Virus record (IMG/VR): IMGVR_UViG_3300006737_000172
Coordinates: 1-25,812 of that record
Strand: one strand, 5' to 3'
DNA: 25,812 bases
Source: a virus
In this document: piece by piece, positions 1,675 to 15,811 of the stretch
Layout of the letters: the number at the start of each line of letters is the position of its first letter
How positions within the stretch are numbered: position 1 is the first letter of the stretch
Translations under genes and position numbers: made by a program
The notes under the pieces: model-generated
Told to the model about the DNA's origin: nothing
What the model saw: the letters and a program-made list of their open reading frames with translations, nothing else
The model's database searches: none

Positions 1675-1706
1675 TATTATCGTTTGGTATTCGTATTTAA
1701 TTTGTG
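1675..1706 (-). promoter_or_regulatory. Left-arm promoter element, copy A
   Basis: On the minus strand this reads CACAAATTAAATACG, 10 variable bases, then GATAATA. It is an exact match to the shared core and points at the ERF-exonuclease-SSB unit. It lies between the sigma-factor stop (1709) and the ERF start. Confidence 0.75.
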
Positions 1707-1708
1707 AA

Positions 1709-2464
1709 CTACATATAATCTAATACTTGTTCAGGGTCTACATTGTTTATTAACTTGTCAACTGCTTGTCTTTTAAGTTGAGATACTCTAACAAATGCAC
1801 TAGAACCCTTTAGTCCTAATATATCTGCTATTGATTGCGCAGAATGTTTCTCACAATCCAACCCATAACTTAATCTAAGCACTTGATATTCTTTACTATT
1901 TAAATATCTTCTTAATAAAGATGATAGATAAGCATTTAACAAATCCATATTATATGGCTCTGACTTATCTTCTACTTCATATACTGCACTACCTTCACCC
2001 ATTGTATCATCTGTAGATAAAAATATAGAGTTGAAGAACATAGCAACCATCTTCTCGTCTTTACCAAAGTTCTTACGTATATCATTTAACTTATGTTCAG
2101 GTATACGCATATCACCTCGATACATATCTATTGATCTACGTATTGTACCTCTAATCCTTTTTGATAAGAAAGACTTCATAGTCTTCTCTTTATCTTCTGA
2201 TAAGTTAAATACGTTCCAGTCTATTCTATCTACAGCTTTAACTAGACCAACACTACCTTCTTGTATTATATCTAGTATATCTAACGTACCAGATGCTTGT
2301 GCTGCAGTTGAAAACTTTTTAGCTATATTTTCTACAAGAGGCATAAACTTGGTTATTAATTGGTTTCTAGTTAATTGCTCGTAATCCACGTCAGGTAAAG
2401 ATGCTGCACTTTGTCTAACATCTTCTTTATATAACCTGTATGTATTTATATTATATTTCTTCAT
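1709..2464 (-). CDS. Phage RNA polymerase sigma-70-family factor
   Basis: The 251-aa protein contains sigma region 2 (about 35-117). LITKFMPLVENIAKKF is followed by LDILDIIQEGSVGLVKAVDR, the core-polymerase-binding 2.1/2.2 helices, and then FLSKRIRGTIRRSID at the 2.3/2.4 position that contacts the -10 element. C-terminal region 4 (about 185-238) carries a helix-turn-helix, YQVLRLSYGL then AQSIADILGLKGSSAFVRVS. An acidic linker replaces most of region 3. It should redirect host core RNA polymerase to phage promoters; the repeated bipartite elements in this arm are the obvious candidate targets (inference). Its start overlaps the end of the upstream HTH gene by 14 bases, so the two are co-translated. 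Confidence 0.9.
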   Translation of the reverse strand: MKKYNINTYRLYKEDVRQSAASLPDVDYEQLTRNQLITKFMPLVENIAKKFSTAAQASGTLDILDIIQEGSVGLVKAVDRIDWNVFNLSEDKEKTMKSFLSKRIRGTIRRSIDMYRGDMRIPEHKLNDIRKNFGKDEKMVAMFFNSIFLSTDDTMGEGSAVYEVEDKSEPYNMDLLNAYLSSLLRRYLNSKEYQVLRLSYGLDCEKHSAQSIADILGLKGSSAFVRVSQLKRQAVDKLINNVDPEQVLDYM

Positions 2465-3077
2465 TTTGAATATTAAGTATATCCTTTTCGTTTTTTAATT
2501 CTTTATCCATATTTCTATGTATAGTTCTTGAGGAACAACCTAATATCTTAGCTAACTTAGCTATTGTAATTCTTGCGTTTGAGTTATTAATTTCTAACAT
2601 ACACTCATATATGTCATTATTATTAACTGATCTAGCTTTACCTATTAACTCACCAACTATCCTTAATTTCTGTTTTGCAGATAAACCAGTAGAGTCTTTA
2701 AATATAACTTTTCTTAATTTATTCTTCGGTGGTTCATTCAAATCAGAATTAAGAACATCAGATAACATATTATCTTTAACGTTGTCCTTAACCGTAAATG
2801 TAATGAATCCATTGTCTTTGTTACATATGTAGTCTATTATTTTTTTCATTCTAATATCTGGTACATGCGGATTTATATAAAATAAAACATACATATGCCA
2901 TTTAAGGGATTTATAAGATGTAATCTTAGCTTTACTACGAAACAGATCATAGCATTGATATGTACCATTTTCAAAATAATAACCCCAAAATAAAGTCTTT
3001 GTAGGTTTATCTGATGTAGGAAACATCCTATATGCTATTCTGTTTCGATGTAAATATTCAAGATTTCTATGTGACAT
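2451..3077 (-). CDS. Helix-turn-helix DNA-binding protein, probable regulator
   Basis: The 208-aa protein is not assignable to a named family. Residues 168-190 (ARITIAKLAKILGCSSRTIHR) form a convincing helix-turn-helix. The N-terminal 70 residues are aromatic-rich, and the middle is Asn/Asp/Lys-rich. The gene sits directly before the sigma factor with a 14-base overlap. Its ATG lies inside the inverted-repeat arm of element R1 (3070-3116). A binding site over its own start codon would suit autoregulation, but this is inferred. No copy of the standard left-arm promoter stands in front of it, so it may use R1 or read-through from 3606-3637. Confidence 0.78.
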   Translation of the reverse strand: MSHRNLEYLHRNRIAYRMFPTSDKPTKTLFWGYYFENGTYQCYDLFRSKAKITSYKSLKWHMYVLFYINPHVPDIRMKKIIDYICNKDNGFITFTVKDNVKDNMLSDVLNSDLNEPPKNKLRKVIFKDSTGLSAKQKLRIVGELIGKARSVNNNDIYECMLEINNSNARITIAKLAKILGCSSRTIHRNMDKELKNEKDILNIQNEEI

Positions 3078-3116
3078 TAGCCCCTTACCCTATTATATTA
3101 ATACCCTATTGTCACA
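3070..3116. repeat. Inverted-end element R1 (copy 1 of 3)
   Basis: This 47-bp element begins TGTGACATTAG and ends CTATTGTCACA, an 11-bp imperfect inverted repeat. The interior on the plus strand (tagccccttaccctat) matches the minus-strand interior of the copy at 10598-10645, so R1 is in opposite orientation to R2 and R3. It contains both the start codon of the HTH gene and the stop codon of the gene at 3112-3600. It could be an operator/promoter, an RNA hairpin or a replication site. Confidence 0.7.
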
Positions 3117-3600
3117 CATACTGTTTAGGTATATCAGTCTTAACAGTTTCATTACTGTTTGCCACATTTTTTTTGTCTCCGACATAATATTTCCAATATG
3201 CTTTAACAGTACATTCATCTTTATACTCATCAGGCATACATTGCGGTGGATCCTCAAAACCTGTATGTAATATACCTCCAGGTAAATAGCTTAATACTTT
3301 TTCACAATCTTTGATTGTCTTATGTATTTTACCATACCTAATTGTATACTGTTTACCTAGCTCTATCATATGACTGTATAACCAAGCATAATTCTCTGCT
3401 GATCTTCTGGCCCACATACTTGAAGGATGATTAACGTGTGCTTTTTTATAGGGTATATGATGGCATTCGTAATCCAACATATGCATCCTGTGAGCCGTAC
3501 ACAGCATCTGGGCTGATTCTAAGATCATCTTAACAACATGTTTATTATATTGATGTCTTGCGGCTTTTATTGGGTCTCGGTCTAAATAAAATATATTCAT
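3112..3600 (-). CDS. Conserved marine-phage protein with H/N/W-rich motifs, function unknown
   Basis: The 162-aa protein starts MNIFYLDRDP. It carries HVVKMILESAQMLCTAHR (His21, Glu28, Gln31, His37), AHVNHPSSMWARRSAENYAW (His55, His58, Trp63, Asn70) and RYGKIHK. I recognise this arrangement from proteins common in marine phages and bacteria, but I know of no established activity. The clustered His, Glu and Asn residues suggest a metal- or nucleic-acid-processing enzyme. A promoter element (3606-3637) ends 6 bases before the ATG, and the stop codon lies within element R1. It is probably transcribed alone or with the HTH-sigma pair. Confidence 0.8.
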   Translation of the reverse strand: MNIFYLDRDPIKAARHQYNKHVVKMILESAQMLCTAHRMHMLDYECHHIPYKKAHVNHPSSMWARRSAENYAWLYSHMIELGKQYTIRYGKIHKTIKDCEKVLSYLPGGILHTGFEDPPQCMPDEYKDECTVKAYWKYYVGDKKNVANSNETVKTDIPKQYV

Positions 3601-3605
3601 AATAA

Positions 3606-3637
3606 TATTATCCTGTAGTGTTCGTATTTAATTTGTG
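3606..3637 (-). promoter_or_regulatory. Left-arm promoter element, copy B
   Basis: Exact CACAAATTAAATACG box, 10-base spacer and GATAATA box, reading leftward into the gene at 3112-3600. It directly abuts the stop codon of the 3D-domain gene (3638). The very short distance to the ATG implies a near-leaderless transcript. Confidence 0.75.
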
Positions 3638-3979
3638 TTAGCTTATTAGTTTAATCTTTACGTTTTTCCACTTACCTAATTTTCTAGTATCTTCTACAAG
3701 AAAATCTATTGAGTCTGTATATCTCTTGTTCATTACGTCTTGTATTTCCCAAGTGCCATCTAAATCTCCTGCACCTGATACCTCGATACACATACCAAAC
3801 TTATAACCTCGTTTTAACATGTCCTGTGACACTGCAACCCATCGGTGTTGTTCAGGACATCTTTCATCAATTCGTGCGCCTGAGGCTGTTATAAGGGGCG
3901 TAGAATCAGTTTGTTCGGGCACAGCATTATATACTGTAGCTGTGACCATTAATATTCCTAATATTTTAGATATTACCAT
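3638..3979 (-). CDS. Secreted or membrane-anchored 3D-domain (double-psi beta-barrel) protein
   Basis: I chose the start MVISKILGILMV at 3979 because it gives an N-terminal hydrophobic signal/anchor segment (residues 1-20) and only a 14-base overlap with the upstream gene. An upstream ATG at 4018 would bury that signal and overlap by 53 bases. The 113-aa product has YNAVPEQTDSTPLITASG, RWVAVSQDML, then GDLDGTWEIQDVMNKRYTDSIDFL. The aspartates near 72/74, 81 and 92 fit the three-aspartate pattern of 3D domains, which are found in peptidoglycan-active proteins. It likely acts in the periplasm on or near the cell wall, perhaps in lysis or superinfection control. Confidence 0.78.
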   Translation of the reverse strand: MVISKILGILMVTATVYNAVPEQTDSTPLITASGARIDERCPEQHRWVAVSQDMLKRGYKFGMCIEVSGAGDLDGTWEIQDVMNKRYTDSIDFLVEDTRKLGKWKNVKIKLIS

Positions 3980-4265
3980 TGTTTCGTTTTTCGTCTTCAA
4001 TTTGATCAAGTTTATCATTGATCTTGTCTACCTTGTTTTTAATTATAGCAGCCTTCTCATATTCTTCTTTGTCTTCGTATAAATTCATCAGCGTCATTAG
4101 CCTTGCTAACTCACCAACCAGAATCTCTTCCTGAGACAACTGCGTGTTTAGTAAAGTAAATAGTACATCATTTATATTAAATAAATCTTTATCCATTTTT
4201 TGCTTAGCTTCAAGCATTTTTTTGATAACAATATCTGCTATCTCTTGTTTTTCTTTATCTGTCAT
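3966..4265 (-). CDS. Small coiled-coil protein with UVR-like motif
   Basis: The 99-aa protein is almost entirely helical and charged. Residues about 70-90 (EEYEKAAIIKNKVDKINDKL) resemble the UVR helical-hairpin motif through which UvrB, UvrC and related proteins pair. The similarity is short and could be generic coiled coil. It lies 1 base after the 4267-4638 gene and overlaps the 3D-domain gene by 14 bases. Function unknown. Confidence 0.72.
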   Translation of the reverse strand: MTDKEKQEIADIVIKKMLEAKQKMDKDLFNINDVLFTLLNTQLSQEEILVGELARLMTLMNLYEDKEEYEKAAIIKNKVDKINDKLDQIEDEKRNNGNI

Positions 4266-4266
4266 A

Positions 4267-4638
4267 TTATTCTTCTATTGGATATTTATCTAAGAACTCT
4301 TTATCATTGTCTTGTAGATAATAAAATTCATCTTGAAGTACATCATCAAAATGACATTTATCATATATATCATCCTCAATATACATTTCAAAACCTTCTT
4401 TACGTATCTCTTGTATAAGTATTTGACATAAGTCATGGTCATACATACAAACATGCTCAGATAAATATAATGCGCCATTGTCTGGTTCGCCATTAAATTT
4501 AGCTACATATAAATCGTAACCATCTCTAGTTATATCTGAATACATTGTGTATTCTACATTGCCAATATCATTATAATCGTGTGTGATTGTTGTTCCGTAA
4601 TGATTGAGCACGGCTGCTACTTTTTCTTCGGTTTCCAT
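4267..4638 (-). CDS. Acidic phage protein of unknown function
   Basis: The 123-aa product is strongly acidic and rich in Tyr, Asp and Glu, especially after residue 60 (YDHDLCQ, YIEDDIYDKCHFDDV). No known domain is recognised. It is the first gene of the unit led by the promoter at 4670-4701. Small acidic early proteins in phages are often host-enzyme inhibitors or DNA mimics, but nothing here proves this. Confidence 0.72.
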   Translation of the reverse strand: METEEKVAAVLNHYGTTITHDYNDIGNVEYTMYSDITRDGYDLYVAKFNGEPDNGALYLSEHVCMYDHDLCQILIQEIRKEGFEMYIEDDIYDKCHFDDVLQDEFYYLQDNDKEFLDKYPIEE

Positions 4639-4669
4639 TGGTTTAAATTTGAATTGGTTTATATAAATA

Positions 4670-4701
4670 TATTATCTTATAGTAATCGTATTTAATTTGT
4701 G
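4670..4701 (-). promoter_or_regulatory. Left-arm promoter element, copy C
   Basis: Exact CACAAATTAAATACG box, 10-base spacer and GATAATA box, oriented into 4638-3638. The upstream box overlaps the last codons and stop of the small membrane-protein gene ending at 4692. Confidence 0.75.
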
Positions 4702-4865
4702 AATTGAGCTATGAAAGCTATTATGGTAATAATATCTATCACAGCAAAAATAAAAAAGTCAATAAAATGTTGCTTTTTATTTACCCAGTCTTGATAGCAA
4801 CTTAGTGCTAACATACTGAATACCATTATGATAAGTAGTCCATAAATAAATAAAAAAGTTTTCAT
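4692..4865 (-). CDS. 57-aa two-segment membrane protein
   Basis: Starting MKTFLFIYGLLIIMVF, it has a hydrophobic segment at about 4-22, a polar loop CYQDWVNKKQH (23-33) and a second hydrophobic segment at about 34-54. This is the profile of a small two-pass inner-membrane protein. It begins one base after the stop of the zinc-ribbon gene (TGATATG). Its end is embedded in promoter copy C. The function is unknown; superinfection-exclusion or holin-like roles are possible but unsupported. Confidence 0.65.
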   Translation of the reverse strand: MKTFLFIYGLLIIMVFSMLALSCYQDWVNKKQHFIDFFIFAVIDIITIIAFIAQFTN

Positions 4866-4866
4866 A

Positions 4867-4974
4867 TCAAAATATTATTTTTACTTTTTTGTCTTTTGTA
4901 CACTTACCACATTTAACTCTGTCTGTAGCATTAAATGCATTACAGTGGGCGCATTGCCAAGCTAGTACTCTCAT
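4867..4974 (-). CDS. 35-aa zinc-ribbon-like microprotein
   Basis: The product contains two CxxC knuckles, CAHC at 8-11 and CGKC at 22-25, 10 residues apart, followed by a Lys-rich tail. That is enough for one four-cysteine zinc ribbon. It ends immediately before the two-pass membrane protein start and lies just downstream of the tRNA. Such ribbons in phages often bind nucleic acid or host polymerase; the role is not established. Confidence 0.62.
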   Translation of the reverse strand: MRVLAWQCAHCNAFNATDRVKCGKCTKDKKVKIIF

Positions 4975-4989
4975 AATTATTAAAATTAG

Positions 4990-5075
4990 CTGTAAGGGGA
5001 GGATTCGAACCTCCAACGTAACATAGTTACACCATCGAGATAGGATGGCGCGTCTGCCAATTTCGCCACCTTACA
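4990..5075 (-). tRNA. Class II (Leu-type body) tRNA with unusual anticodon loop
   Basis: On the minus strand a perfect 7-bp acceptor stem (TGTAAGG/CCTTACA) encloses a Leu-like D arm (GGCGAAATTGGCAGACGC). The anticodon stem is CCATC/GATGG, the long variable arm is GTAAC-TAT-GTTAC, and the T arm is canonical (GGAGG-TTCGAAT-CCTCC). The anticodon loop is CTATCTC, which would place ATC at positions 34-36 and pyrimidines at 37 and 38. ATC would read Asp codons, which conflicts with a Leu-type body, and the discriminator base is G rather than the usual A for Leu. CCA is not encoded. Fold confidence is high; amino-acid identity is left open. Confidence 0.8.
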
Positions 5076-5078
5076 GTA

Positions 5079-5106
5079 TGTAGGTCTTTTTTAAAGTGAA
5101 CCTACA
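5079..5106. other. 7-bp hairpin just upstream of the tRNA
   Basis: TGTAGGT and ACCTACA form a perfect inverted repeat around a 14-base loop, ending 3 bases before the tRNA 5' end. No U-tract follows on the minus strand, so a processing signal or protein site is as likely as a terminator. The stretch up to 5161 holds nothing else that I can identify. Confidence 0.4.
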
Positions 5107-5161
5107 AACACTTTTCAACTAAACTAACTAGATAAATAAACATTACTACTACTAAATAGTG

Positions 5162-5554
5162 TCATAAAAATCTTTTACTATGATCATTATCATAATCTGT
5201 TTCAAGAAACTCTATTTTCTTCAATATTTTTTTACACAAATCATTATCTAAACCAAATAATTGGTCTTTAGCTTCCTCTCTTGGTAACATCCTAGTGTCT
5301 ATGTGTAGGTTAAAAGGGAAGTATGTTATGCACAAATCTACAACTCTTTGATCAAAAAGTTCTTTATCTATGAATAAATTCTCATGTACAGAGAAACTGT
5401 TTGCGGACTTTAGTGTATAGCATTTATCTTGACACGCAGTCAGACCATATATAATTTCATATGGTATATGATATTTATTTAATTGCTCTTGAGTTAAATC
5501 TTTATATATGATAAGCTCAAGCTTTGCTGATACTTGTTGCTGTAGACTATTCAT
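5162..5554 (-). CDS. Hypothetical phage protein
   Basis: The 130-aa soluble protein has an N-terminal helical region (MNSLQQQVSAKLELI), a central Cys-containing segment (LTACQDKCYTL) and a charged C-terminal helix. No family is recognised. Its ATG overlaps the stop of the 5547-5759 gene by 8 bases. It is the last protein gene before the tRNA in the long unit driven from 7386-7417. Confidence 0.7.
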   Translation of the reverse strand: MNSLQQQVSAKLELIIYKDLTQEQLNKYHIPYEIIYGLTACQDKCYTLKSANSFSVHENLFIDKELFDQRVVDLCITYFPFNLHIDTRMLPREEAKDQLFGLDNDLCKKILKKIEFLETDYDNDHSKRFL

Positions 5555-5759
5555 ATTCTCTGATAACTTTAAGTCCTAATTGACTAGCTGCATAGTTAAT
5601 ATGTTTGCTAGTAGTTTGTGAATACCACTTAGGTACAATCATCTTACCATCAGATATTGTTGCAACCTTAGTATTGTAACTCCATATAGCACCATCGTGC
5701 ATTCTTAAATTCTCTCTATATCTATTAAATCCTCTCATAACTTCTGTTTTTATATACAT
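5547..5759 (-). CDS. Small conserved phage protein (YSQTTSKHIN type)
   Basis: The 70-aa basic protein contains MHDGAIWSYNTKVATI followed by VPKWYSQTTSKHINYAASQLG. I recognise similar small proteins from many phages, where the WYSxTTSKHIN block is the conserved core, but I know of no assigned function. It overlaps the upstream gene by 35 bases. An internal Met at position 9 (MRGFNRY) would shorten the overlap and is a possible alternative start. Confidence 0.75.
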   Translation of the reverse strand: MYIKTEVMRGFNRYRENLRMHDGAIWSYNTKVATISDGKMIVPKWYSQTTSKHINYAASQLGLKVIREYE

Positions 5760-5928
5760 CCTTTAATCGTTCAAAATCTTTCTTAACTTGATCTATGGTC
5801 ATTTCTTTATACATATCCTTAACATTATCTACATTACCTGGTGACAGGTGGTTAGAGCTAAGAGACATTGTTATTATAGCATTAACCATAAAATTTTTAC
5901 TTACTTTTATATCAATTTCATCATTCAT
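5725..5928 (-). CDS. Hypothetical 67-aa protein
   Basis: The C-terminal half is helical and charged (MYKEMTIDQVKKDFERLKDVYKN), and the N-terminal half contains a short hydrophobic stretch (FMVNAIITMSL). No known domain is recognised. The start lies 4 bases after the stop of the FSNKL microprotein at 5933. Confidence 0.65.
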   Translation of the reverse strand: MNDEIDIKVSKNFMVNAIITMSLSSNHLSPGNVDNVKDMYKEMTIDQVKKDFERLKDVYKNRSYERI

Positions 5929-5932
5929 AATA

Positions 5933-6100
5933 TTACTGTTTATCTTCTTTCATCTTAAATTTACTTTTGTTGTTAGCTATTCTTGCACTACTATAAATCC
6001 AATCTCTAAGTTTATTAGAAAATACAAAATTATATTTACATATTCTGTACTCATTTTCATTATGATATAATGCTTCTATTTGTTTAGGTATCTTCTGCAT
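5933..6100 (-). CDS. 55-aa FSNKL-motif protein, partial paralogue of its neighbour
   Basis: The reading frame from ATG 6100 encodes a small basic protein. Its core, YNFVFSNKLRDWIYSSAR, matches YGFIFSNKLEDWLGSANR near the C-terminus of the adjacent 6084-6425 product. It overlaps that gene by 17 bases in another frame. It lacks the neighbour's N-terminal cysteine motif, so it may be a duplicated C-terminal module working as a stand-alone binding domain. Function unknown. Confidence 0.68.
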   Translation of the reverse strand: MQKIPKQIEALYHNENEYRICKYNFVFSNKLRDWIYSSARIANNKSKFKMKEDKQ

Positions 6101-6425
6101 CACTTTCAATTTTTTTAGCTTTTCTTTTTTCTTCGTATCTCATTCTTTTAGTTCTATTTGCACTACCTAACCAGTCTTCTAATTTATTTGAGAATATAAA
6201 ACCATAAGAATTATCTTGTATAGGTGCATTATTACTACCTCTTATTATTGCATTTATATTTGAAGTTGAAAAGCTAGGGTTATCAACACCCATTTCTTTA
6301 CGTGTTTTAACTGCGCCATACTTTGATCCACAATATGGTGAACAAAATTTAACTCTTGTGTGTAATTTACCACACTCAAGACACGGCTTTATTTCAGGAT
6401 CCCAATGTTTTTCCATTTTCTTCAA
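6084..6425 (-). CDS. Zinc-finger protein with C-terminal FSNKL motif
   Basis: The 113-aa protein has a four-cysteine N-terminal motif (CLEC at 15-18, then CSPYC at 28-32) typical of a treble-clef or zinc-ribbon knuckle. A basic segment with KTRKEMGVDNPS follows, then FIFSNKLEDWLGSANRTKR and a Lys/Glu-rich tail. CxxC plus CSxxC suggests nucleic-acid binding, as in endonuclease-associated zinc fingers, but no catalytic HNH residues are seen. It overlaps its upstream neighbour by 32 bases; starting at the internal Met (MEKHWDP) would reduce this to 23. Confidence 0.72.
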   Translation of the reverse strand: MKKMEKHWDPEIKPCLECGKLHTRVKFCSPYCGSKYGAVKTRKEMGVDNPSFSTSNINAIIRGSNNAPIQDNSYGFIFSNKLEDWLGSANRTKRMRYEEKRKAKKIESDAEDT

Positions 6426-6762
6426 TTAATTTACAGTTCTTTCGTTCATATTCTCTCAAGTATTTTTCCATTTCCCATATATCTTCAAACAATATCCTAG
6501 CATAAGTATAATTACCATTTGGTGATGTTACTTTTTTTACAGGATTTATCTGATGCAATGTTAGGTTTTTAGTAGACATAACTTTATCTCTGTAATATAG
6601 AGATCCATGTCTTTTCTTATACCAATCTTGCCAGTCAGGATCATTAATCCAACTAGGACTAACTCTAATATAACCAGTTTTAGGATATATTACACCTATA
6701 CGGTTATCTTTTAACCGATAGTACATAGCTTGAGTTTTATCTATAATTTTAATTAGTTTCAT
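6394..6762 (-). CDS. Hypothetical basic phage protein
   Basis: The 122-aa product starts MKLIKIIDKTQAMYYRLKD and is rich in Tyr, Lys and Trp (SWINDPDWQDWYKKRHGSLY). No domain is recognised. The basic, aromatic composition suits a nucleic-acid-binding protein. It is preceded by a 10-base gap and overlaps the zinc-finger gene at its end. Confidence 0.68.
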   Translation of the reverse strand: MKLIKIIDKTQAMYYRLKDNRIGVIYPKTGYIRVSPSWINDPDWQDWYKKRHGSLYYRDKVMSTKNLTLHQINPVKKVTSPNGNYTYARILFEDIWEMEKYLREYERKNCKLIEENGKTLGS

Positions 6763-6772
6763 AGTTTAGTGT

Positions 6773-7021
6773 TTAGAATCTTTGAGGGTAATCGTCACTT
6801 GTTACAAGTTTTTGTAGTCTTTCAGACAGATCATCACCTAATAAATCACGTACTGTATTTATATCTTGTAAGTATATAGGTTTGTTAGCTAACAGTTTTT
6901 TAAGTGTTTTATCTACAACTGTTAAATCTTCGCGAAGTATACTCAACCTACCTTGTATGTCAGAGTATATTCTTATTAATCTTTTATCACGTTCCATAAA
7001 GTGCCATTCAGGTTTAATCAT
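6773..7021 (-). CDS. Hypothetical helical protein
   Basis: The 82-aa product is predicted to be largely helical, with heptad-like Leu spacing (LSILREDLTVVDKTLKKLLANK). It starts MIKPEWHFMERD and ends PQRF. Its ATG is nested in the stop of the upstream single-pass membrane microprotein (AATGATTAA), a sign of translational coupling. Function unknown. Confidence 0.68.
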   Translation of the reverse strand: MIKPEWHFMERDKRLIRIYSDIQGRLSILREDLTVVDKTLKKLLANKPIYLQDINTVRDLLGDDLSERLQKLVTSDDYPQRF

Positions 7022-7133
7022 TTATTAAAAATTTATATAAAGGGAAAAATGCAAGTGCAAATGCAGAAATAATCATTAACATTACTATCCAAGAAAATAC
7101 AAGTAGTAATATGTTTTTTAGTTTATATTTCAT
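7014..7133 (-). CDS. 39-aa single-pass membrane microprotein
   Basis: The product is a short basic N-terminus (MKYKLKN) followed by an uninterrupted hydrophobic helix (about 8-33) and a short tail. The gene exactly fills the gap between neighbours. ATG 7133 overlaps the TGA of the upstream gene (ATGA), and its TAA overlaps the next ATG by 8 bases. This coupling is strong evidence that it is real despite its size. Confidence 0.68.
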   Translation of the reverse strand: MKYKLKNILLLVFSWIVMLMIISAFALAFFPLYKFLIND

Positions 7134-7360
7134 ATAGTTTCGTCGTGTATAGCATTTGCTTCATTGATTTTATCAAATAAATGTTTAGGCATATACTTGT
7201 AATACAATTGTTTTACATCATCGGTATTACCGAGTTCATCCATAGCGTCGTAGATAGCTCGCTGTGACTGTACGCCATTGATCCATTTGCTGTGATCGTC
7301 ACTGTAGTGGTAGTACCAATCATGTGACTTAAGTAGGTTAATTAAAGTAGTGGTGTCCAT
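7130..7360 (-). CDS. Hypothetical 76-aa protein, first gene of the 7.4-4.7 kb unit
   Basis: The product is rich in Tyr, His and Asp (SHDWYYHYSDDHSKW near the N-terminus) and otherwise helical. No family is recognised. It is the first gene downstream of promoter copy D, with an A-rich leader ending AAACCTATGG. Roughly eleven small genes and the tRNA follow without another copy of the promoter element. Confidence 0.7.
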   Translation of the reverse strand: MDTTTLINLLKSHDWYYHYSDDHSKWINGVQSQRAIYDAMDELGNTDDVKQLYYKYMPKHLFDKINEANAIHDETI

Positions 7361-7385
7361 AGGTTTATTTATTTGTTTATATATA

Positions 7386-7417
7386 TATTATCTGTTAGTG
7401 ATCGTATTTAATTTGTG
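7386..7417 (-). promoter_or_regulatory. Left-arm promoter element, copy D
   Basis: Exact CACAAATTAAATACG box, 10-base spacer and GATAATA box. The upstream box overlaps the end of the gene that stops at 7408. It points into the longest left-arm cluster (7360 down to 4692). Confidence 0.78.
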
Positions 7418-7782
7418 TTCTCTGTTTGGTCAGGTACAACTGTATAAAATCTTGTTTGAAGATATGTTTTAATATCTTCAGTAGCATCATAGTCTAAGCA
7501 TATGTTAGATATTGAAACTTCATTATTATACCCTATTTCAAAATCAGTGTCGTAGTCACCTATATTTTGACTCATGTCATCAAATATATCTGATACCATC
7601 TGAGCTATATCTTGAACCATTATTTCAAGATCACTTTCTAATATTTTAGGTTTTTCTATTATCATAATATCTTCGTTTAGTGAATCTATTTGTTGTTGCA
7701 TTCTACCATTAGCGTTCTTGTTATATTCTATTTGCCTAATAAGATCTTTGATCTTTTCATCTATTTCTTGTTTTTTATTCAT
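7408..7782 (-). CDS. Coiled-coil acidic protein, function unknown
   Basis: I prefer the start MNKKQEIDEKIKDL at 7782, giving 124 aa and an 8-base overlap with the nuclease gene. The ATG at 7836 would add a poor hydrophobic leader inside the nuclease frame. The N-terminal 45 residues form a coiled coil, and the rest is acidic (DIFDDMSQNIGDYDTDFEIG). The gene is third in the unit from promoter copy E. Its last codons carry part of promoter copy D. Confidence 0.7.
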   Translation of the reverse strand: MNKKQEIDEKIKDLIRQIEYNKNANGRMQQQIDSLNEDIMIIEKPKILESDLEIMVQDIAQMVSDIFDDMSQNIGDYDTDFEIGYNNEVSISNICLDYDATEDIKTYLQTRFYTVVPDQTENTN

Positions 7783-8173
7783 AGCTATTATATTGTTTGA
7801 ATTTATTAAAATAAAAGTAATTATATTGCTTTGCATAACCTTGTTTAAGCATTAGTAGATTAACATCTCTGCCATTTAAATAAACATAGCGCAGTAGTCT
7901 ACCATACTTGTCTTTGTTATGTAAGTTATTATCTTTTTGTAGTGTAATAGTTTTACCTTTTATTAAGTCATATAAATACATTTTAGATCTTATGCCTTGT
8001 AGTGAAGGTAGCTCAGGCGCATCTATACCTATCATACGTACTTTGTCACCTTTGTTAGTTACGAATGTATCACCATCAATAACTCTGTATACTGTAGTAC
8101 TTCTGTTTAAGTATATCATATATGATACCAGTAAAAACAAGATTAGTGCTAGCATGTATTTATTATGTTTCAT
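7775..8173 (-). CDS. Thermonuclease-like (SNase-fold) nuclease with N-terminal membrane segment
   Basis: The 132-aa protein has a hydrophobic N-terminus (about 6-22, LALILFLLVSYMIYL) that may be a signal or anchor, followed by a compact staphylococcal-nuclease domain. VIDGDT (31-36), VRMIGIDAPE (45-54) and DKYGRLLRYVYLNGRDVN (88-105) supply the expected Asp33, Arg46, Asp51, Glu54 and Arg92, matching the catalytic Arg-Asp-Glu-Arg set. It would hydrolyse DNA or RNA in a calcium-dependent way, probably outside the cytoplasm given the N-terminus. At about 110 residues the domain is minimal. It overlaps both neighbours by 8-11 bases. Confidence 0.88.
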   Translation of the reverse strand: MKHNKYMLALILFLLVSYMIYLNRSTTVYRVIDGDTFVTNKGDKVRMIGIDAPELPSLQGIRSKMYLYDLIKGKTITLQKDNNLHNKDKYGRLLRYVYLNGRDVNLLMLKQGYAKQYNYFYFNKFKQYNSYE

Positions 8174-8354
8174 AATCTAATTTAAGTTTACGTAGTATTT
8201 CATCTCGCTCTTGTAGGTAAAATTTAGGACCTATTAGTAGATTTTTATCTGGGTACTGCTCGTGATACTCTAGTGTATCATCATGCAACTTAGTTAAATG
8301 ACTATGTATACATTCAGCTAACATAGTCTTTTGGAAATGTGTTAATTTATTCAT
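8163..8354 (-). CDS. Hypothetical 63-aa protein
   Basis: The product is helical and His/Leu-rich at the N-terminus (MNKLTHFQKTMLAECIHSHL), with YLQERDEILRKLKLDYET at the end. It is the first gene after promoter copy E, whose downstream box ends 5 bases before the ATG. It overlaps the nuclease start by 11 bases. Function unknown. Confidence 0.68.
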   Translation of the reverse strand: MNKLTHFQKTMLAECIHSHLTKLHDDTLEYHEQYPDKNLLIGPKFYLQERDEILRKLKLDYET

Positions 8355-8359
8355 ATATA

Positions 8360-8391
8360 TATTATCTAAAGCGATTCGTATTTAATTTGTG
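8360..8391 (-). promoter_or_regulatory. Left-arm promoter element, copy E
   Basis: Exact CACAAATTAAATACG box, 10-base spacer and GATAATA box, immediately before the gene at 8163-8354. It overlaps the stop codon of the gene ending at 8362. Confidence 0.75.
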
Positions 8392-8580
8392 AGAGATATC
8401 TTTTGGATCATAAGTTTTACCTTCTGAGCCATAATCTGTCAATGCATAGAAATCAATTCTATTTTTCTTAGAAAAAGCAATTGCTTCTTTAAGGTCGTCA
8501 AACTCATAATCTTCTTCGTGATAATCACCATCATCTGTGTGAGGTCGCAGTTCTACATTATATCTTTTCATCTTCTTCAA
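8362..8580 (-). CDS. Hypothetical acidic 72-aa protein
   Basis: After a basic start (MKKMKRYNVELRPHTD) the protein carries an acidic patch (DGDYHEEDYEFDDL) and a helix (KEAIAFSKKNR). The pattern of a beta strand, DLKEAIAFSKKN and a final strand resembles small alpha-beta phage proteins, but no family is certain. An internal Met (MKRYNVE) is an alternative start. Its 3' end runs into promoter copy E. Confidence 0.68.
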   Translation of the reverse strand: MKKMKRYNVELRPHTDDGDYHEEDYEFDDLKEAIAFSKKNRIDFYALTDYGSEGKTYDPKDISHKLNTNRFR

Positions 8581-8743
8581 ATTCTAGTTTAATATTATAT
8601 TCATTTGCCACTCGTTTCATTAATATTGTAACGTAGTGTTTTTTATCTCTTGTCATCTCACATAAAAAACCTGACAGGTATTCTAGTGCGTCGATGCAGT
8701 CTTTACTGTTTACTTTGTTTATCATATTATTTAGTCGATCCAT
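8558..8743 (-). CDS. Hypothetical 61-aa protein
   Basis: It is helical, with MDRLNNMINKVNSKDCIDALEYLSGFLCEM and an acidic C-terminus. No family is recognised. It overlaps the 3' end of the 8731-8892 gene by 13 bases and the next gene by 23, as expected in a tightly coupled phage operon. Confidence 0.66.
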   Translation of the reverse strand: MDRLNNMINKVNSKDCIDALEYLSGFLCEMTRDKKHYVTILMKRVANEYNIKLEFEEDEKI

Positions 8744-8892
8744 TTATTTTGATATTTAAATTTAATTTCTGCATTGTGCTTGTCTTGAGATTTAGCATGT
8801 ACACCTACTATTCTATAATAGTATCCATCGCTTAGTAAATGTGTAAGCATACCAAAATCAGTTACAATAACATTTGATTTTTCATTTTTCAT
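8731..8892 (-). CDS. 53-aa protein, first gene after promoter F
   Basis: The frame from ATG 8892 encodes a mixed polar protein with MLTHLLSDGYYYRIVGVHAK in the middle. Strand-rich spacing suggests a small beta protein. A second ATG at 8885 is out of frame. Promoter copy F starts 6 bases upstream, and the gene overlaps the next one by 13 bases; both facts support it being real. Function unknown. Confidence 0.65.
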   Translation of the reverse strand: MKNEKSNVIVTDFGMLTHLLSDGYYYRIVGVHAKSQDKHNAEIKFKYQNKWID

Positions 8893-8897
8893 ATATA

Positions 8898-8929
8898 TAT
8901 TATCCATAGTAATTCGTATTTAAATTATG
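8898..8929 (-). promoter_or_regulatory. Left-arm promoter element, copy F (upstream box diverged)
   Basis: The GATAATA box, the 10-base spacer and the TACG end of the upstream box are conserved; the distal part is CATAATTTAAATACG. It is oriented into 8892-8362 and lies 6 bases past the 3' end of the tRNA-like RNA. Confidence 0.68.
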
Positions 8930-8934
8930 TATAG

Positions 8935-9069
8935 TGGACGTGGCAGGACTTGAACCTGCTCTAACCTCTGATTTCAAAGGGTAATAACTATTGAGTGTTT
9001 TTAGTACTACCGCACTTGCATTATCACTCGCATTACTACTCGATACTTTGAACTAACCATTTCACGTCC
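8935..9069 (-). ncRNA. 135-nt tRNA-like RNA with an extended central arm
   Basis: The minus strand folds with a perfect 7-bp acceptor stem (GGACGTG/CACGTCC) and discriminator A. The T arm is canonical (GCAGG-TTCAAGT-CCTGC), and a D-loop-like ATGGTTAG carries the GG pair. Instead of a normal anticodon arm there is a long arm closed by TTCAAAG/CTTTGAA. Inside it nest GTAAT/ATTAC, GAGTG/CACTC and AGTGC/GTACT. The linker before the T arm is 13 nt. It is too short for tmRNA and shows no tag frame; no plausible intron removal gives a standard tRNA that I could find. CCA is not encoded. Confidence 0.6.
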
Positions 9070-9079
9070 ATAGTTAATA

Positions 9080-9280
9080 TTATTTAAATTGTGCAGGTAC
9101 ATCTACTTTGTACTCTGTTTTACTTTTGTACATCTTTCTTTTTATTGTTTCTATCATTAGTGCTTGATCTTGCCACACTGCAGTGTCTTGTTCACCTGCA
9201 TGCCAAAGTGTATAGCACTCTTCTTTGTATTGGATTAGTGCTTCTTCTAATACCTCTTTTTCTTTTTTAGTTAGTTTCAT
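9080..9280 (-). CDS. MKLTKKEK-type small helical protein (paralogue 1)
   Basis: The 66-aa charged helical protein begins MKLTKKEKEVLEEALIQYKE. The next gene upstream encodes a product beginning MKLTEKEKDTFSMALHALDR, so the two look like tandem paralogues. The stop/start overlap is ATGA. No function is recognised; the helix-rich, highly charged make-up suggests a protein- or DNA-binding adaptor. Confidence 0.68.
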   Translation of the reverse strand: MKLTKKEKEVLEEALIQYKEECYTLWHAGEQDTAVWQDQALMIETIKRKMYKSKTEYKVDVPAQFK

Positions 9281-9435
9281 AGTACAATTTTGTTATTTAG
9301 TGATTTCATTACTTCTATAACTTGCATAAAATACTTTTTATCTATAAGTCCTTTTTTAAATAGTTTACTTTGTTCTCTATCAAGTGCATGTAATGCCATT
9401 GAGAATGTGTCTTTTTCTTTTTCAGTTAGTTTCAT
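9277..9435 (-). CDS. MKLTEKEK-type small helical protein (paralogue 2)
   Basis: A 52-aa frame from ATG 9435 begins MKLTEKEKDTFSMALHALDR and ends MKSLNNKIVL. It shares the MKLTxKEK opening and spacing with the product of 9080-9280, and its TGA overlaps that gene's ATG by 4 bases. The gene fills the gap between its neighbours exactly. Confidence 0.65.
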   Translation of the reverse strand: MKLTEKEKDTFSMALHALDREQSKLFKKGLIDKKYFMQVIEVMKSLNNKIVL

Positions 9436-9437
9436 AA

Positions 9438-9566
9438 TTAATATTCTTTTAATGTACCTTTATCTTTAGAGTTCATAAACTCTTTACCAAACATAAGTTC
9501 CATATAGTCTTTTTTTGACATCTCTACTTTTGTAACTGGGTGATAGTATTTGTTTCCTTTTTTCAT
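9438..9566 (-). CDS. Hypothetical 42-aa basic protein
   Basis: A frame from ATG 9566 encodes MKKGNKYYHPVTKVEMSKKD and ends GTLKEY. It is basic and soluble with no recognisable domain. Its ATG overlaps the TGA of the upstream gene (ATGA), and its stop lies 2 bases before the next start. This arrangement is the main evidence for it. Confidence 0.6.
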   Translation of the reverse strand: MKKGNKYYHPVTKVEMSKKDYMELMFGKEFMNSKDKGTLKEY

Positions 9567-9835
9567 AGTTGTTTTACTTGTTTAATTAGTTTATCAAAAT
9601 TCTCAATATATATTTCTGCTAGTCGAGGATCTATAGTATTATTATCTATATCATTTCTCATCCACTCTGACATATCTTCGAGTGTTATTATTATCTCTGA
9701 CTTAATGAAGTTCTTATTACTTATTTCATTTGTCATGTGACTTATCATTTCTAAAGAGGTCATATATGCTTCATTTGAAACTGAATCCACCTCTGGTGTG
9801 TATAGCATTGCTGCTAATGCTAGTGTTTTAATCAT
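9563..9835 (-). CDS. Hypothetical 90-aa protein, possibly exported
   Basis: The N-terminus MIKTLALAAMLYTPEVDSVS looks like a short signal peptide with a possible cleavage near residues 12-18. The rest is an acidic helical domain (IIITLEDMSEWMRNDIDNN, then LAEIYIENFDKLIKQVKQL). No known family is recognised. The gene contains one copy of the GTGTATAGCA word (9798-9807). It follows a hairpin-terminator at 9850-9873 and so may be expressed by attenuated read-through. Confidence 0.7.
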   Translation of the reverse strand: MIKTLALAAMLYTPEVDSVSNEAYMTSLEMISHMTNEISNKNFIKSEIIITLEDMSEWMRNDIDNNTIDPRLAEIYIENFDKLIKQVKQL

Positions 9836-9849
9836 AGTTCTGTTAGTTT

Positions 9850-9873
9850 AAAAAACTATGCTATGGCATAGTT
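9850..9873 (-). terminator. Intrinsic terminator or attenuator overlapping a stop codon
   Basis: On the minus strand AACTATGC-CATA-GCATAGTT is a perfect 8-bp hairpin running straight into a T-tract. It includes the last codons and stop of the gene at 9856-9987. It stands before a cluster lacking its own promoter copy, so it may act as an attenuator. Confidence 0.65.
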
Positions 9874-9987
9874 GTTGTTTTTATAAGTTATATATTTTCT
9901 ATATTCTAAAGTTGAATTAATTTTAATATAAGGTATATTATTAATTAATATTTTTTTAGAAGTTAAAACTTTGATAGTGTTAGGCAT
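9856..9987 (-). CDS. Hypothetical 43-aa protein
   Basis: The frame from ATG 9987 encodes a basic, Ile/Asn/Tyr-rich peptide starting MPNTIKVLTSKKILINNIPY. It follows promoter copy G at normal distance, and its stop is contained in a terminator hairpin. That makes a neat small transcription unit. No function is recognised. Confidence 0.6.
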   Translation of the reverse strand: MPNTIKVLTSKKILINNIPYIKINSTLEYRKYITYKNNNYAIA

Positions 9988-10025
9988 AGTAGTATATGTT
10001 TATATGTTTAAAATTTATTTAATTA

Positions 10026-10057
10026 TATTATCTGTAGTGAAACGTATTATGTTTGTA
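10026..10057 (-). promoter_or_regulatory. Left-arm promoter element, copy G (variant)
   Basis: TACAAACATAATACG box, 10-base spacer and GATAATA box, directed at the small gene 9856-9987. It ends 2 bases before the stop codon of the gene at 10059. Confidence 0.66.
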
Positions 10058-10058
10058 A

Positions 10059-10166
10059 TTAGTCATAACCTAAGTGCATGTTAATCTCTTCTGCACTCAT
10101 TTCCATTATTTCTTCATAAGTGTAATCTGTGTTAGCAATCATTAGTTCTATTAGTAAGTTAGCCAT
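10059..10166 (-). CDS. Hypothetical 35-aa acidic peptide
   Basis: The frame from ATG 10166 encodes MANLLIELMIANTDYTYEEI followed by MEMSAEEINMHLGYD. It is predicted to be helical and acidic, and the leader is A-rich (ACCAATACCACTATGG). It is isolated between a terminator (10202-10240) and promoter copy G, and no promoter element of the shared type precedes it. It is therefore weaker than the coupled microgenes. Confidence 0.5.
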   Translation of the reverse strand: MANLLIELMIANTDYTYEEIMEMSAEEINMHLGYD

Positions 10167-10201
10167 AGTGGTATTGGTTTAAAGTGGATATATTATTTAA
10201 T

Positions 10202-10240
10202 AAAAAAATAGCAGAGAGCAGCCATAAGGCACACTCTCTG
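10202..10240 (-). terminator. Rho-independent terminator after the 10251-10499 gene
   Basis: Minus strand: CAGAGAG and CTCTCTG form a 7-bp stem with an inner GCC-TTAT-GGC helix. The stem is followed by CTATTTTTTT. It begins 11 bases after the stop codon. Confidence 0.75.
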
Positions 10241-10250
10241 ACTACTAAAC

Positions 10251-10499
10251 TTATATAAATTCTATATTTCTAACAAACTTTGGTAGATTATTGGAATTAG
10301 TATAGCTTTTATACTTCTCGAAACAAGGCATTGCTTCAAATCTATCTTTTAAAGTATTATATACTTTATCATGATTATAAGTACAGTCATCACCTTTATT
10401 ATTTTTGAAAGTGATAATAGTATTTTTACCTATAAGTGACTTAGCTATGATGAAGCGATTAGTTGTTTTATTATTAGTTTTATTTTTAGTAGTAGTCAT
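10251..10499 (-). CDS. Small basic protein, paralogue of the 11063-11299 product
   Basis: The 82-aa product has a Thr/Asn/Lys-rich N-terminal tail followed by FIIAKSLIGKNTIITFKNNK, YNHDKVYNTLKDRFEAMPCF and KYKSYTNSNNLPKFVRN. These blocks align throughout with the protein encoded at 11063-11299. Function unknown; basic and compact, it could bind nucleic acid. It is a monocistronic unit with promoter copy H upstream and a strong terminator behind, suggesting high, tightly bounded expression. Confidence 0.78.
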   Translation of the reverse strand: MTTTKNKTNNKTTNRFIIAKSLIGKNTIITFKNNKGDDCTYNHDKVYNTLKDRFEAMPCFEKYKSYTNSNNLPKFVRNIEFI

Positions 10500-10537
10500 A
10501 ATTAAATTATTTAAATGTTTAAAATTAAATTCAATAT

Positions 10538-10569
10538 TATTATCAATATGAAGTCGTAATCTGTCTGTG
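10538..10569 (-). promoter_or_regulatory. Left-arm promoter element, copy H (variant, with upstream GTGTATAGCA)
   Basis: CACAGACAGATTACG box, 10-base spacer and GATAATA box, 38 bases before the ATG at 10499. The word GTGTATAGCA (minus strand, 10582-10573) sits 3 bases upstream of the box, where an activator could bind. Confidence 0.62.
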
Positions 10570-10597
10570 AAGTGCTATACACACTAGTAAAGAAAAG

Positions 10598-10645
10598 TGT
10601 GACATTAGGCTATTAATAAGGATAGAGTAAGGGGCTATTGTCACA
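10598..10645. repeat. Inverted-end element R2 (copy 2 of 3)
   Basis: This 48-bp element begins TGTGACATTAG and ends CTATTGTCACA. Its interior matches R1 in inverted orientation and R3 in the same orientation. It lies upstream of promoter copy H, with the 10-mer GTGTATAGCA between them. The 90 bases from here to 10735 hold no gene that I can support. Confidence 0.7.
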
Positions 10646-10729
10646 GTATTGTTTGTTAAGTTGCTCATTAAAACTAAGCCCACCTCTGGATTGCTCGAAT
10701 AGCGGCGTTAGTTACTAAAACTGTATGTT

Positions 10730-10754
10730 AGCTACTACTTACAGAATAGTAGCT
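10730..10754 (-). terminator. Stop-codon-straddling hairpin
   Basis: AGCTACTA and TAGTAGCT form a perfect 8-bp stem with a 9-base loop that carries the last codons and the stop of the 10735-10986 gene. No U-tract follows, so it may stabilise the 3' end of the mRNA rather than terminate transcription. Confidence 0.45.
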
Positions 10755-10986
10755 GAGTTTCATACAATTGGGATTGAGCATCCCACATTTCACTGACCTC
10801 GTCAGCACCATCGAGCATATCCTCAAAATCATTATCCTTATACAAATCAAAGTTATGTTTTATTATACAGTAGATTTGATCTTCATCTTCTTCAATCCAT
10901 GAACAGTGATCGAATGCTCTATTTTTAATCATTAATTCCAAATTATTACCTAGTAATTCTTTCATTTTATTATTATAATTTATCAT
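10735..10986 (-). CDS. Acidic phage protein of unknown function
   Basis: The 83-aa product is strongly acidic in its central part (CSWIEEDEDQIYC, then DNDFEDMLDGADEVSEMWDAQ), with a basic N-terminal helix. No family is recognised. The spread of carboxylates resembles small phage inhibitors or DNA mimics, without proof. It stands alone between promoter copy I and the hairpin at its stop codon. Confidence 0.7.
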   Translation of the reverse strand: MINYNNKMKELLGNNLELMIKNRAFDHCSWIEEDEDQIYCIIKHNFDLYKDNDFEDMLDGADEVSEMWDAQSQLYETQLLFCK

Positions 10987-11019
10987 AGTAGTTTATTTAT
11001 TTATTAATTTATTTATATT

Positions 11020-11051
11020 TATTATCAATTTAATTTAGTTATTTGTTTGTG
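11020..11051 (-). promoter_or_regulatory. Left-arm promoter element, copy I (diverged)
   Basis: CACAAACAAATAACT box, 10-base spacer and GATAATA box, before the gene at 10735-10986. The leader between the element and the ATG is a run of AAAT-type repeats (10987-11019). Confidence 0.58.
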
Positions 11052-11054
11052 AGT

Positions 11055-11078
11055 GAAGAAACTCAAACGAGTTCCTTC
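11055..11078 (-). terminator. Stop-codon-straddling 10-bp hairpin
   Basis: On the minus strand GAAGGAACTC-GTTT-GAGTTTCTTC forms 10 pairs with one G-U. It spans the last codons and the stop of the 11063-11299 gene, directly before promoter copy I. No U-tract follows. Confidence 0.45.
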
Positions 11079-11299
11079 ATATTTCTTACAAACACAGGTA
11101 AGTTATTAGTATTTGTATAAGATTTATACTTAGCAAAACATGGCATACTCTCAAATCTTTTCTTGTGAGCGTTATATACCTTATCATGATCATATGTAAC
11201 CTTCTTACCTTTATTAGTAGTGAATGTTATTATTGTATTTGTATTGATAAGAGTTTTTCTTATTACAAATCTTTTGGTATTAATTTTATTAGTAGTCAT
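11063..11299 (-). CDS. Small basic protein, paralogue of the 10251-10499 product
   Basis: The 78-aa product contains KTLINTNTIITFTTNKG, YDHDKVYNAHKKRFESMPCF and KYKSYTNTNNLPVFVRN. It aligns from end to end with the product of 10251-10499, so one arose by duplication. It is the first protein gene of the left arm beyond the divergent junction and is preceded by two promoter-like copies (J and K). First-in-arm position suggests very early expression. Function unknown. Confidence 0.78.
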   Translation of the reverse strand: MTTNKINTKRFVIRKTLINTNTIITFTTNKGKKVTYDHDKVYNAHKKRFESMPCFAKYKSYTNTNNLPVFVRNMKELV

Positions 11300-11336
11300 A
11301 ATTATATTTATTTAATTTAAAATTTATTTATATTAT

Positions 11337-11368
11337 TATTATCAATTATATATAGTAATTTATTTGTG
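11337..11368 (-). promoter_or_regulatory. Left-arm promoter element, copy J (diverged)
   Basis: CACAAATAAATTACT box, 10-base spacer and GATAATA box, 38 bases before the ATG at 11299. The spacing to the gene matches that of copy H before the paralogue. Confidence 0.58.
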
Positions 11369-11415
11369 AGTGATTTATTTTAATTTAATTTATTTATTTA
11401 TTTATTTTATATATA

Positions 11416-11447
11416 TATTATCTTTAATAACTCGTAGTTAGTTTGTG
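11416..11447 (-). promoter_or_regulatory. Left-arm promoter element, copy K (tandem with J)
   Basis: CACAAACTAACTACG box, 10-base spacer and GATAATA box. GTGTATAGCA lies 2 bases upstream (11459-11450, minus strand), as at copy H. No gene separates K from J; the interval is an A/T tetranucleotide-like leader. K and J would be tandem promoters for 11063-11299. Confidence 0.6.
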
Positions 11448-15775: not shown

Positions 15776-15811
15776 AAAACTAAATGAGTGTGTAACTATA
15801 CTCTAAGAAAC

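What the first reader, a model, noticed from the sequence alone, without database searches (positions are those of the whole stretch)
1675..11447. Eleven copies of one bipartite promoter-like element organise the whole left arm
On the minus strand each copy is CACAAATTAAATACG or a variant, exactly 10 bases, then GATAATA. Five copies (A-E) are exact and six (F-K) diverge in the upstream box. The spacing is invariant and every copy points at the start of a gene cluster. Several overlap the previous stop codon. GATAATA looks like a -10 box. The upstream box is neither a standard -35 nor the Bacteroidota -33 TTTG, although TTAAATAC faintly recalls T4 late promoters. None was noticed in the right arm. 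This suggests a phage-specific early/middle regulon, possibly read by the sigma factor encoded here.
Basis: partly seen in the sequence, partly recalled or inferred. Interest (0 to 1): 0.7.

Follow-up and report, generated by a model that had tools for sequence, protein, structure and literature searches.

The report
Phage promoter array with leaderless genes
A widespread but undescribed group of aquatic phages, probably infecting Bacteroidota, carries arrays of near-identical, rigidly built transcription-start signals across its early gene arm, always alongside a phage-encoded sigma factor, and about one in six appears to start the message exactly on the first codon.

Summary
Eleven copies of YACAAAYTAAATACGA-N9-GATAATA lie on the minus strand of the left arm and none in the right arm. 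The exact pattern recurs in 37 stretches of other viral contigs of one phage group. Sites taken by the upstream box alone are followed by GATAATA at one fixed distance in 72/72 and 671/691 cases. Across 202 unique sites the base 12 nt after the G is a purine in 98%, so GATAAT reads as a -10 element. In 32 sites an ORF begins exactly at +1, as at three window copies: predicted leaderless mRNAs. Arrays accompany a phage sigma factor: 142/170 sigma-anchored loci have one on the sigma strand, 0/170 on the other. Five terminase relatives lack both. T7-type polymerase, MotA and AsiA are absent, with positive controls. The upstream box drifts in concert within lineages without covarying with sigma region 4, so its reader is unidentified. 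Best reading: a phage-sigma promoter class driving the early/middle arm. No transcription data exist; everything is in silico.

The parts
1675..1706 (-). element copy A; predicted +1 at 1669; 19-nt leader to the Erf-like gene (start 1650)
3606..3637 (-). element copy B; predicted +1 at 3600 = A of the ATG (leaderless); heads the operon that ends with the sigma gene
4670..4701 (-). element copy C; +1 at 4664; 26-nt leader; overlaps previous stop codon
7386..7417 (-). element copy D; +1 at 7380; 20-nt leader; overlaps previous stop codon
8360..8391 (-). element copy E; +1 at 8354 = A of ATG (leaderless); overlaps previous stop codon
8898..8929 (-). element copy F (2 mismatches); +1 at 8892 = A of ATG (leaderless)
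10026..10057 (-). element copy G (divergent box); +1 at 10020; 33-nt leader
10538..10569 (-). element copy H (divergent box); +1 at 10532; 33-nt leader
11020..11051 (-). element copy I (divergent box); +1 at 11014; 28-nt leader
11337..11368 (-). element copy J (3 mismatches); +1 at 11331; 32-nt leader
11416..11447 (-). element copy K (2 mismatches); tandem partner of J, +1 at 11410, same gene
1709..2464 (-). phage sigma70-family factor (251 aa; regions 2 and 4), candidate reader of GATAATA
   Evidence: Pfam Sigma70_r2, PHROG 351, NCBIfam sigma70 superfamily above cut-off, AF2 model with sigma matches in PDB; 544 relatives in viral contigs
2451..3077 (-). 208-aa helix-turn-helix protein overlapping the sigma gene; possible partner
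   Evidence: HTH_11 in 21 of 34 members; AF2 pLDDT 90 with no significant PDB fold match; lost in one clade
3112..3600 (-). first gene of the sigma operon (PHROG 624, DNA binding protein), predicted leaderless from copy B

Best explanation
The element is a promoter class specific to this phage group. GATAAT is a -10 element (-12..-7), transcription starts 7 nt further on at a purine, and the 16-bp box at -37..-22 replaces a normal -35. It is most likely read by host core RNA polymerase carrying the phage-encoded sigma factor: region 2 reads GATAATA, and the box is read either by an unidentified partner (favoured) or by sigma region 4. It drives the replication/recombination (early-middle) arm, including the sigma operon itself (copy B), which gives a self-reinforcing switch. 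At about one site in six the start codon is the first base of the transcript. Shown in silico: copies, rigid spacing, conserved +1, strand and arm bias, co-occurrence with sigma. Inferred: that it is transcribed, that sigma reads it, the timing, and the leaderless mRNAs.
For: Invariant -10 and fixed spacing measured without using the -10: 72/72 and 671/691. The base at +1 is a purine in 98% of 202 unique sites, T 67% at -1, and all 11 window copies have a purine there. A leader of exactly 0 nt occurs at 32 sites, against 0-4 at each flanking length from -6 to +6. Sigma-anchored sampling: 142/170 loci with a co-oriented array, 0/170 on the opposite strand. Sigma region 2 is found in 8/8 family genomes and 0/5 sister phages, and those sister phages also lack the element. 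Sigma region 2.4 carries FliA-like residues (G and R where SigA has Q and T), and the FliA -10 is GCCGATAA (PMC2859248), so GATAA is shared. Flavobacterial sigmaA instead reads TAnnTTTG at -12..-5 (PMC9723704), and host-type TTTG-N18-22-TAnnTTTG sites are not enriched.
Against: No transcript or binding data. The box changes between phages whose sigma is 84-91% identical (L353/L362, L207/L202, L326/L263), and its variation does not correlate with sigma region 4 (r about -0.02, permutation p 0.56). Co-occurrence of sigma and element is largely one clade, so it is confounded by shared descent. The sigma gene sits inside the regulon, so another way to make the first sigma molecules is needed and none was found. 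The sigma could instead serve the late arm, where a different motif exists.
Confidence: 0.62

Rival explanations
1. Activator-type promoter in the manner of T4 middle promoters: a phage (or host) DNA-binding protein reads the box centred near -30 and recruits polymerase with the host or the phage sigma. This overlaps with the best explanation in its favoured form.
For: The box is centred at about -30 with a strict -10, as in T4 middle promoters (PMC6755090). Box variation is independent of sigma region 4. An HTH protein is co-encoded with sigma, and the one clade that lost it has the CGAAA box in 6 of 7 phages.
Against: MotA and AsiA are absent with T4 as positive control. The HTH helix does not track the box and the element persists in phages without the HTH gene. 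No other gene family correlates clearly.
Confidence: 0.35
2. Immediate-early promoter read by host polymerase with a host sigma factor; the phage sigma is for the late arm.
For: The element drives the arm that must be read first, and no recognisable sigmaA promoter is enriched elsewhere. The late arm has its own motif TGTAACTATAWTATAGTAA.
Against: GATAATA is unlike the flavobacterial TAnnTTTG box. Related phages of flavobacteria without the sigma gene have no such element.
Confidence: 0.2
3. T7-type promoter for a single-subunit phage RNA polymerase: AAATACG, ten bases, then G as +1, as in TAATACG-N10-G of T7.
For: The upstream sequence and spacing look alike by eye.
Against: PF00940 is absent from the family genomes searched and rings in T7 at 1e-109; phmmer with T7 RNAP finds nothing. 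The -9..-1 bases are not conserved, and the conserved purine lies 12 nt after the G.
Confidence: 0.03
4. Not a promoter: repeated protein-binding sites such as replication iterons or operators.
For: Copy number and near-identity.
Against: Fixed orientation and position before gene starts, conserved +1 purine, sharp peak of ATG at +1, spread over 5-10 kb.
Confidence: 0.04

Closest known systems
Promoters of phage-encoded sigma factors of phiEco32 (gp36) and Salmonella phage 7-11 (gp47)
   Same: Phage sigma70-family factor, phage-specific promoter consensus, start 6-9 bp from the proximal element (PMC8948821).
   Different: Consensus sequences tAATGTAtA and GTAAtg-(16)-aCTA are unrelated; those promoters serve middle/late genes of enterobacterial phages; here a 16-bp box at rigid spacing on the early/replication arm.
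T4 middle promoters (MotA box plus -10)
   Same: Upstream box centred near -30 replacing the -35 and a strict -10 (PMC6755090).
   Different: No MotA or AsiA homologue; box sequence and length differ; the phage encodes its own sigma.
FliA (sigma28) promoters
   Same: -10 contains GATAA; phage sigma region 2.4 aligns to FliA with shared RI[KR]G.
   Different: The -35 is not TAAAGTTT; spacing and upstream box differ; the sigma is not FliA (below the NCBIfam FliA cut-off).
Bacteroidota sigmaA promoters
   Same: Host group is probably Bacteroidota: terminase relatives infect Flavobacterium, Cellulophaga, Tenacibaculum, Maribacter; MAG contigs with the sigma include Flavobacteriaceae, Lewinella and Sphingobacteriales bins.
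   Different: -7 box TAnnTTTG is absent from the element; leaderless mRNAs are 5.5% in F. psychrophilum against about 16% predicted here.

Membership tests
Phage sigma-dependent promoters | Phage encodes a sigma70-family protein | tested here: met
   Pfam Sigma70_r2 above cut-off in the window; 8/8 family genomes match it at E <= 0.001, 7 over the cut-off
Phage sigma-dependent promoters | Conserved promoter-proximal element with start about 7 nt downstream | tested here: met
   GATAAT at -12..-7, purine at +1 in 98%; start inferred, not mapped
Phage sigma-dependent promoters | Transcription by core polymerase plus the phage sigma | not testable with these tools
   needs in vitro transcription
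Phage sigma-dependent promoters (sigma as sole reader of both elements) | Upstream element covaries with sigma region 4 | tested here: not met
T4 middle promoters | Box centred near -30 with consensus -10 | tested here: met
   box -37..-22, GATAAT -10
T4 middle promoters | MotA and AsiA encoded | tested here: not met
   PF09158 and PF09010 absent, both ring in T4
T7-type promoters | Single-subunit RNA polymerase encoded | tested here: not met
   PF00940 absent, rings in T7; phmmer with T7 RNAP
Bacteroidota sigmaA promoters | TAnnTTTG at -12..-5 | tested here: not met
   GATAATA at -12..-6; host-type sites not enriched
FliA promoters | TAAAGTTT-n11-GCCGATAA | tested here: not met
   only GATAA shared

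The most novel reading that the evidence does not exclude
A two-key promoter system: a phage sigma with a FliA-like region 2.4 reads GATAATA, while a separate, fast-evolving specificity protein (phage- or host-encoded) reads a 16-bp box at rigid spacing, with a substantial fraction of the regulon made as leaderless mRNAs in a phylum that lacks Shine-Dalgarno signals.
Probability: 0.35. Interest if true: 0.72.

Novelty: new variant of a known kind. Interest (0 to 1): 0.55.

Why it matters
It gives a readable transcription map for a very common group of uncultured phages (at least 544 viral contig stretches encode the sigma). It predicts transcription starts to the base and leaderless genes. It also supplies natural variants of box and sigma with which promoter recognition in Bacteroidota phages can be dissected, where I found no described phage-sigma promoter system in the papers searched.

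Tried and rejected
T7-type promoter. Virion RNA polymerase in the giant late proteins: catalytic motif scan, Pfam, PHROGs and PDB sequence search gave nothing but a weak crAss muzzle hit. Covariation of the box with sigma residues, HTH residues and 37 neighbouring gene families: no clear reader. The SSB-like protein (fam5, r 0.27 with the middle of the box) was the strongest single signal but is implausible as a promoter reader and not corrected for many tests. Host-type promoters: not enriched. Rfam: no family. Papers: no report of this motif found in the searched library, which omits most subscription journals.

Full report
Observation. The window is a 25.8-kb fragment of a virus record. Its left arm is read leftwards and carries Erf, a PDDEXK exonuclease, SNase, sigma and an HTH protein. 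Its right arm is read rightwards and carries GroEL/ES and two large tail-type proteins. The element occurs 11 times, all on the minus strand in the left arm: 1675-1706, 3606-3637, 4670-4701, 7386-7417, 8360-8391, 8898-8929, 10026-10057, 10538-10569, 11020-11051, 11337-11368 and 11416-11447. Shuffles give none, and a profile finds no other copy on either strand.

Relatives. The exact 22 specified bases occur in 37 stretches of other viral contigs. These belong to one phage group: they share the sigma, HTH, Erf, exonuclease, GroEL/ES and small early genes with the window. Near-complete members are 60-71 kb, with a portal, terminase and capsid arm (and a crAss-like muzzle-type protein) divergent from the element-bearing arm. 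In each contig the copies lie almost entirely on one strand, with 0-2 matches for the reversed pattern. Terminase and portal relatives among named phages are Flavobacterium elemo phages, Cellulophaga phi38:1 and phi13:2, Tenacibaculum Gundel and an uncultured complete genome, MW202828. The five examined lack the element and any sigma region 2; the sigma profile finds only one weak hit.

Anatomy. 190 aligned sites give YACAAAYTAAATACGA, 9 free bases, GATAATA, then TAAAT. Because selecting sites by GATAATA would bias this, I searched with the box alone. All 72 exact boxes, and 671 of 691 lineage-specific boxes, are followed by GATAATA, and 673 of 674 at the same spacing. Such rigidity is unusual for ordinary sigma70 spacers, which vary by a base or two (general knowledge). 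Taking GATAAT as -12..-7, position +1 is A 65% and G 33%, and -1 is T 67%. The length from +1 to the first ORF of at least 40 codons is exactly 0 in 32 of 202 sites, against 0-4 at each neighbouring length. In the window copies B, E and F have this geometry. The start site and the leaderless mRNAs are therefore predictions with good internal support, not measurements.

Link to the sigma factor. An independent sample taken by sigma homology, not by the motif, gave 220 loci. Of 170 with at least 3 kb upstream, 142 carry three or more similar boxes on the sigma strand and none on the opposite strand. The sigma has regions 2 and 4, and an AlphaFold model matches sigma chains in the PDB (global TM is low, as expected if the domains are arranged differently). 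Where SigA has WWIRQAITR the phage has KRIRGTIRR. FliA has a similar LRIKGAI, and its -10 is GCCGATAA. This makes reading of GATAATA by region 2 plausible; that is inference.

The open part. The box drifts in concert within each phage but differs between phages: CGAAA, CACGG, ARTCTAAACACGA, GGTTnACACGA and other types, with GATAATA and the spacing unchanged. Concerted change suggests a trans-acting reader. Sigma region 4 is nearly constant across these types, and pairs with 84-91% identical sigma have different boxes. Correlation of box distance with region 4 distance is nil. The HTH protein encoded upstream of sigma has two weak signs in its favour: correlation of its C-terminal domain with the -26..-22 part, p 0.005 uncorrected, and CGAAA boxes in 6 of the 7 phages that lost it. 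But the element persists without it.

Other promoters. Host-type TTTG-N18-22-TAnnTTTG sites are not above shuffles. The late arm of several relatives has another conserved intergenic motif, TGTAACTATAWTATAGTAA: 15 sites with up to 2 mismatches, all on the late strand and none on the early strand. They fall mainly at two recurrent contexts, so shared descent may inflate the count. The sigma could serve that motif instead.

Alternatives. The by-eye likeness to T7 promoters fails: no single-subunit RNA polymerase with a working positive control, and the wrong conservation pattern. T4 middle promoters are the nearest architecture, but MotA and AsiA are absent. Phage 7-11 and phiEco32 are the nearest mechanism, with different sequences.

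Limits. No expression data, no cultured member, host inferred from relatives and a few MAG bins (the Aliivibrio, Ilumatobacteraceae and Clostridium bins disagree and may be misbinned or, for Clostridium at 26% identity, unrelated). Many sites are related by descent. The literature library is open-access only.

Noticed in passing
3072, 10600, 11643 (each about 43 bp): Three copies of an inverted repeat TGACAWTAG...CTAWTGTCA; also in several other contigs of the group, not in most. Possible terminator, operator or mobile element.
   Followed up: partly
15791-15809 (+) and late arms of relatives: Second conserved intergenic motif TGTAACTATAWTATAGTAA, late strand only; the window copy is a 3-mismatch variant. 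Candidate late promoter.
   Followed up: partly
4989-5075 (-): tRNA gene with a long variable arm but anticodon ATC, called tRNA-Asp; an odd combination.
   Followed up: no
8931-9069 (-): tRNA-like sequence (GGTTCAAGTCCTGCC and matching acceptor ends) directly before copy F, not called by ARAGORN even allowing introns.
   Followed up: partly
2451-3077 (-): 208-aa HTH protein nearly always next to sigma, confident model without a significant PDB fold match; lost in one clade.
   Followed up: yes
L353, L360, L325, L329, L328, L226, L362: Phages without the HTH gene; six of seven have CGAAA instead of ACAAA in the upstream box.
   Followed up: partly
G007, G026, G029, G033 inside the HTH gene: A weaker copy of the element inside the HTH coding sequence, several hundred bases before the sigma gene: possible internal sigma promoter.
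   Followed up: no
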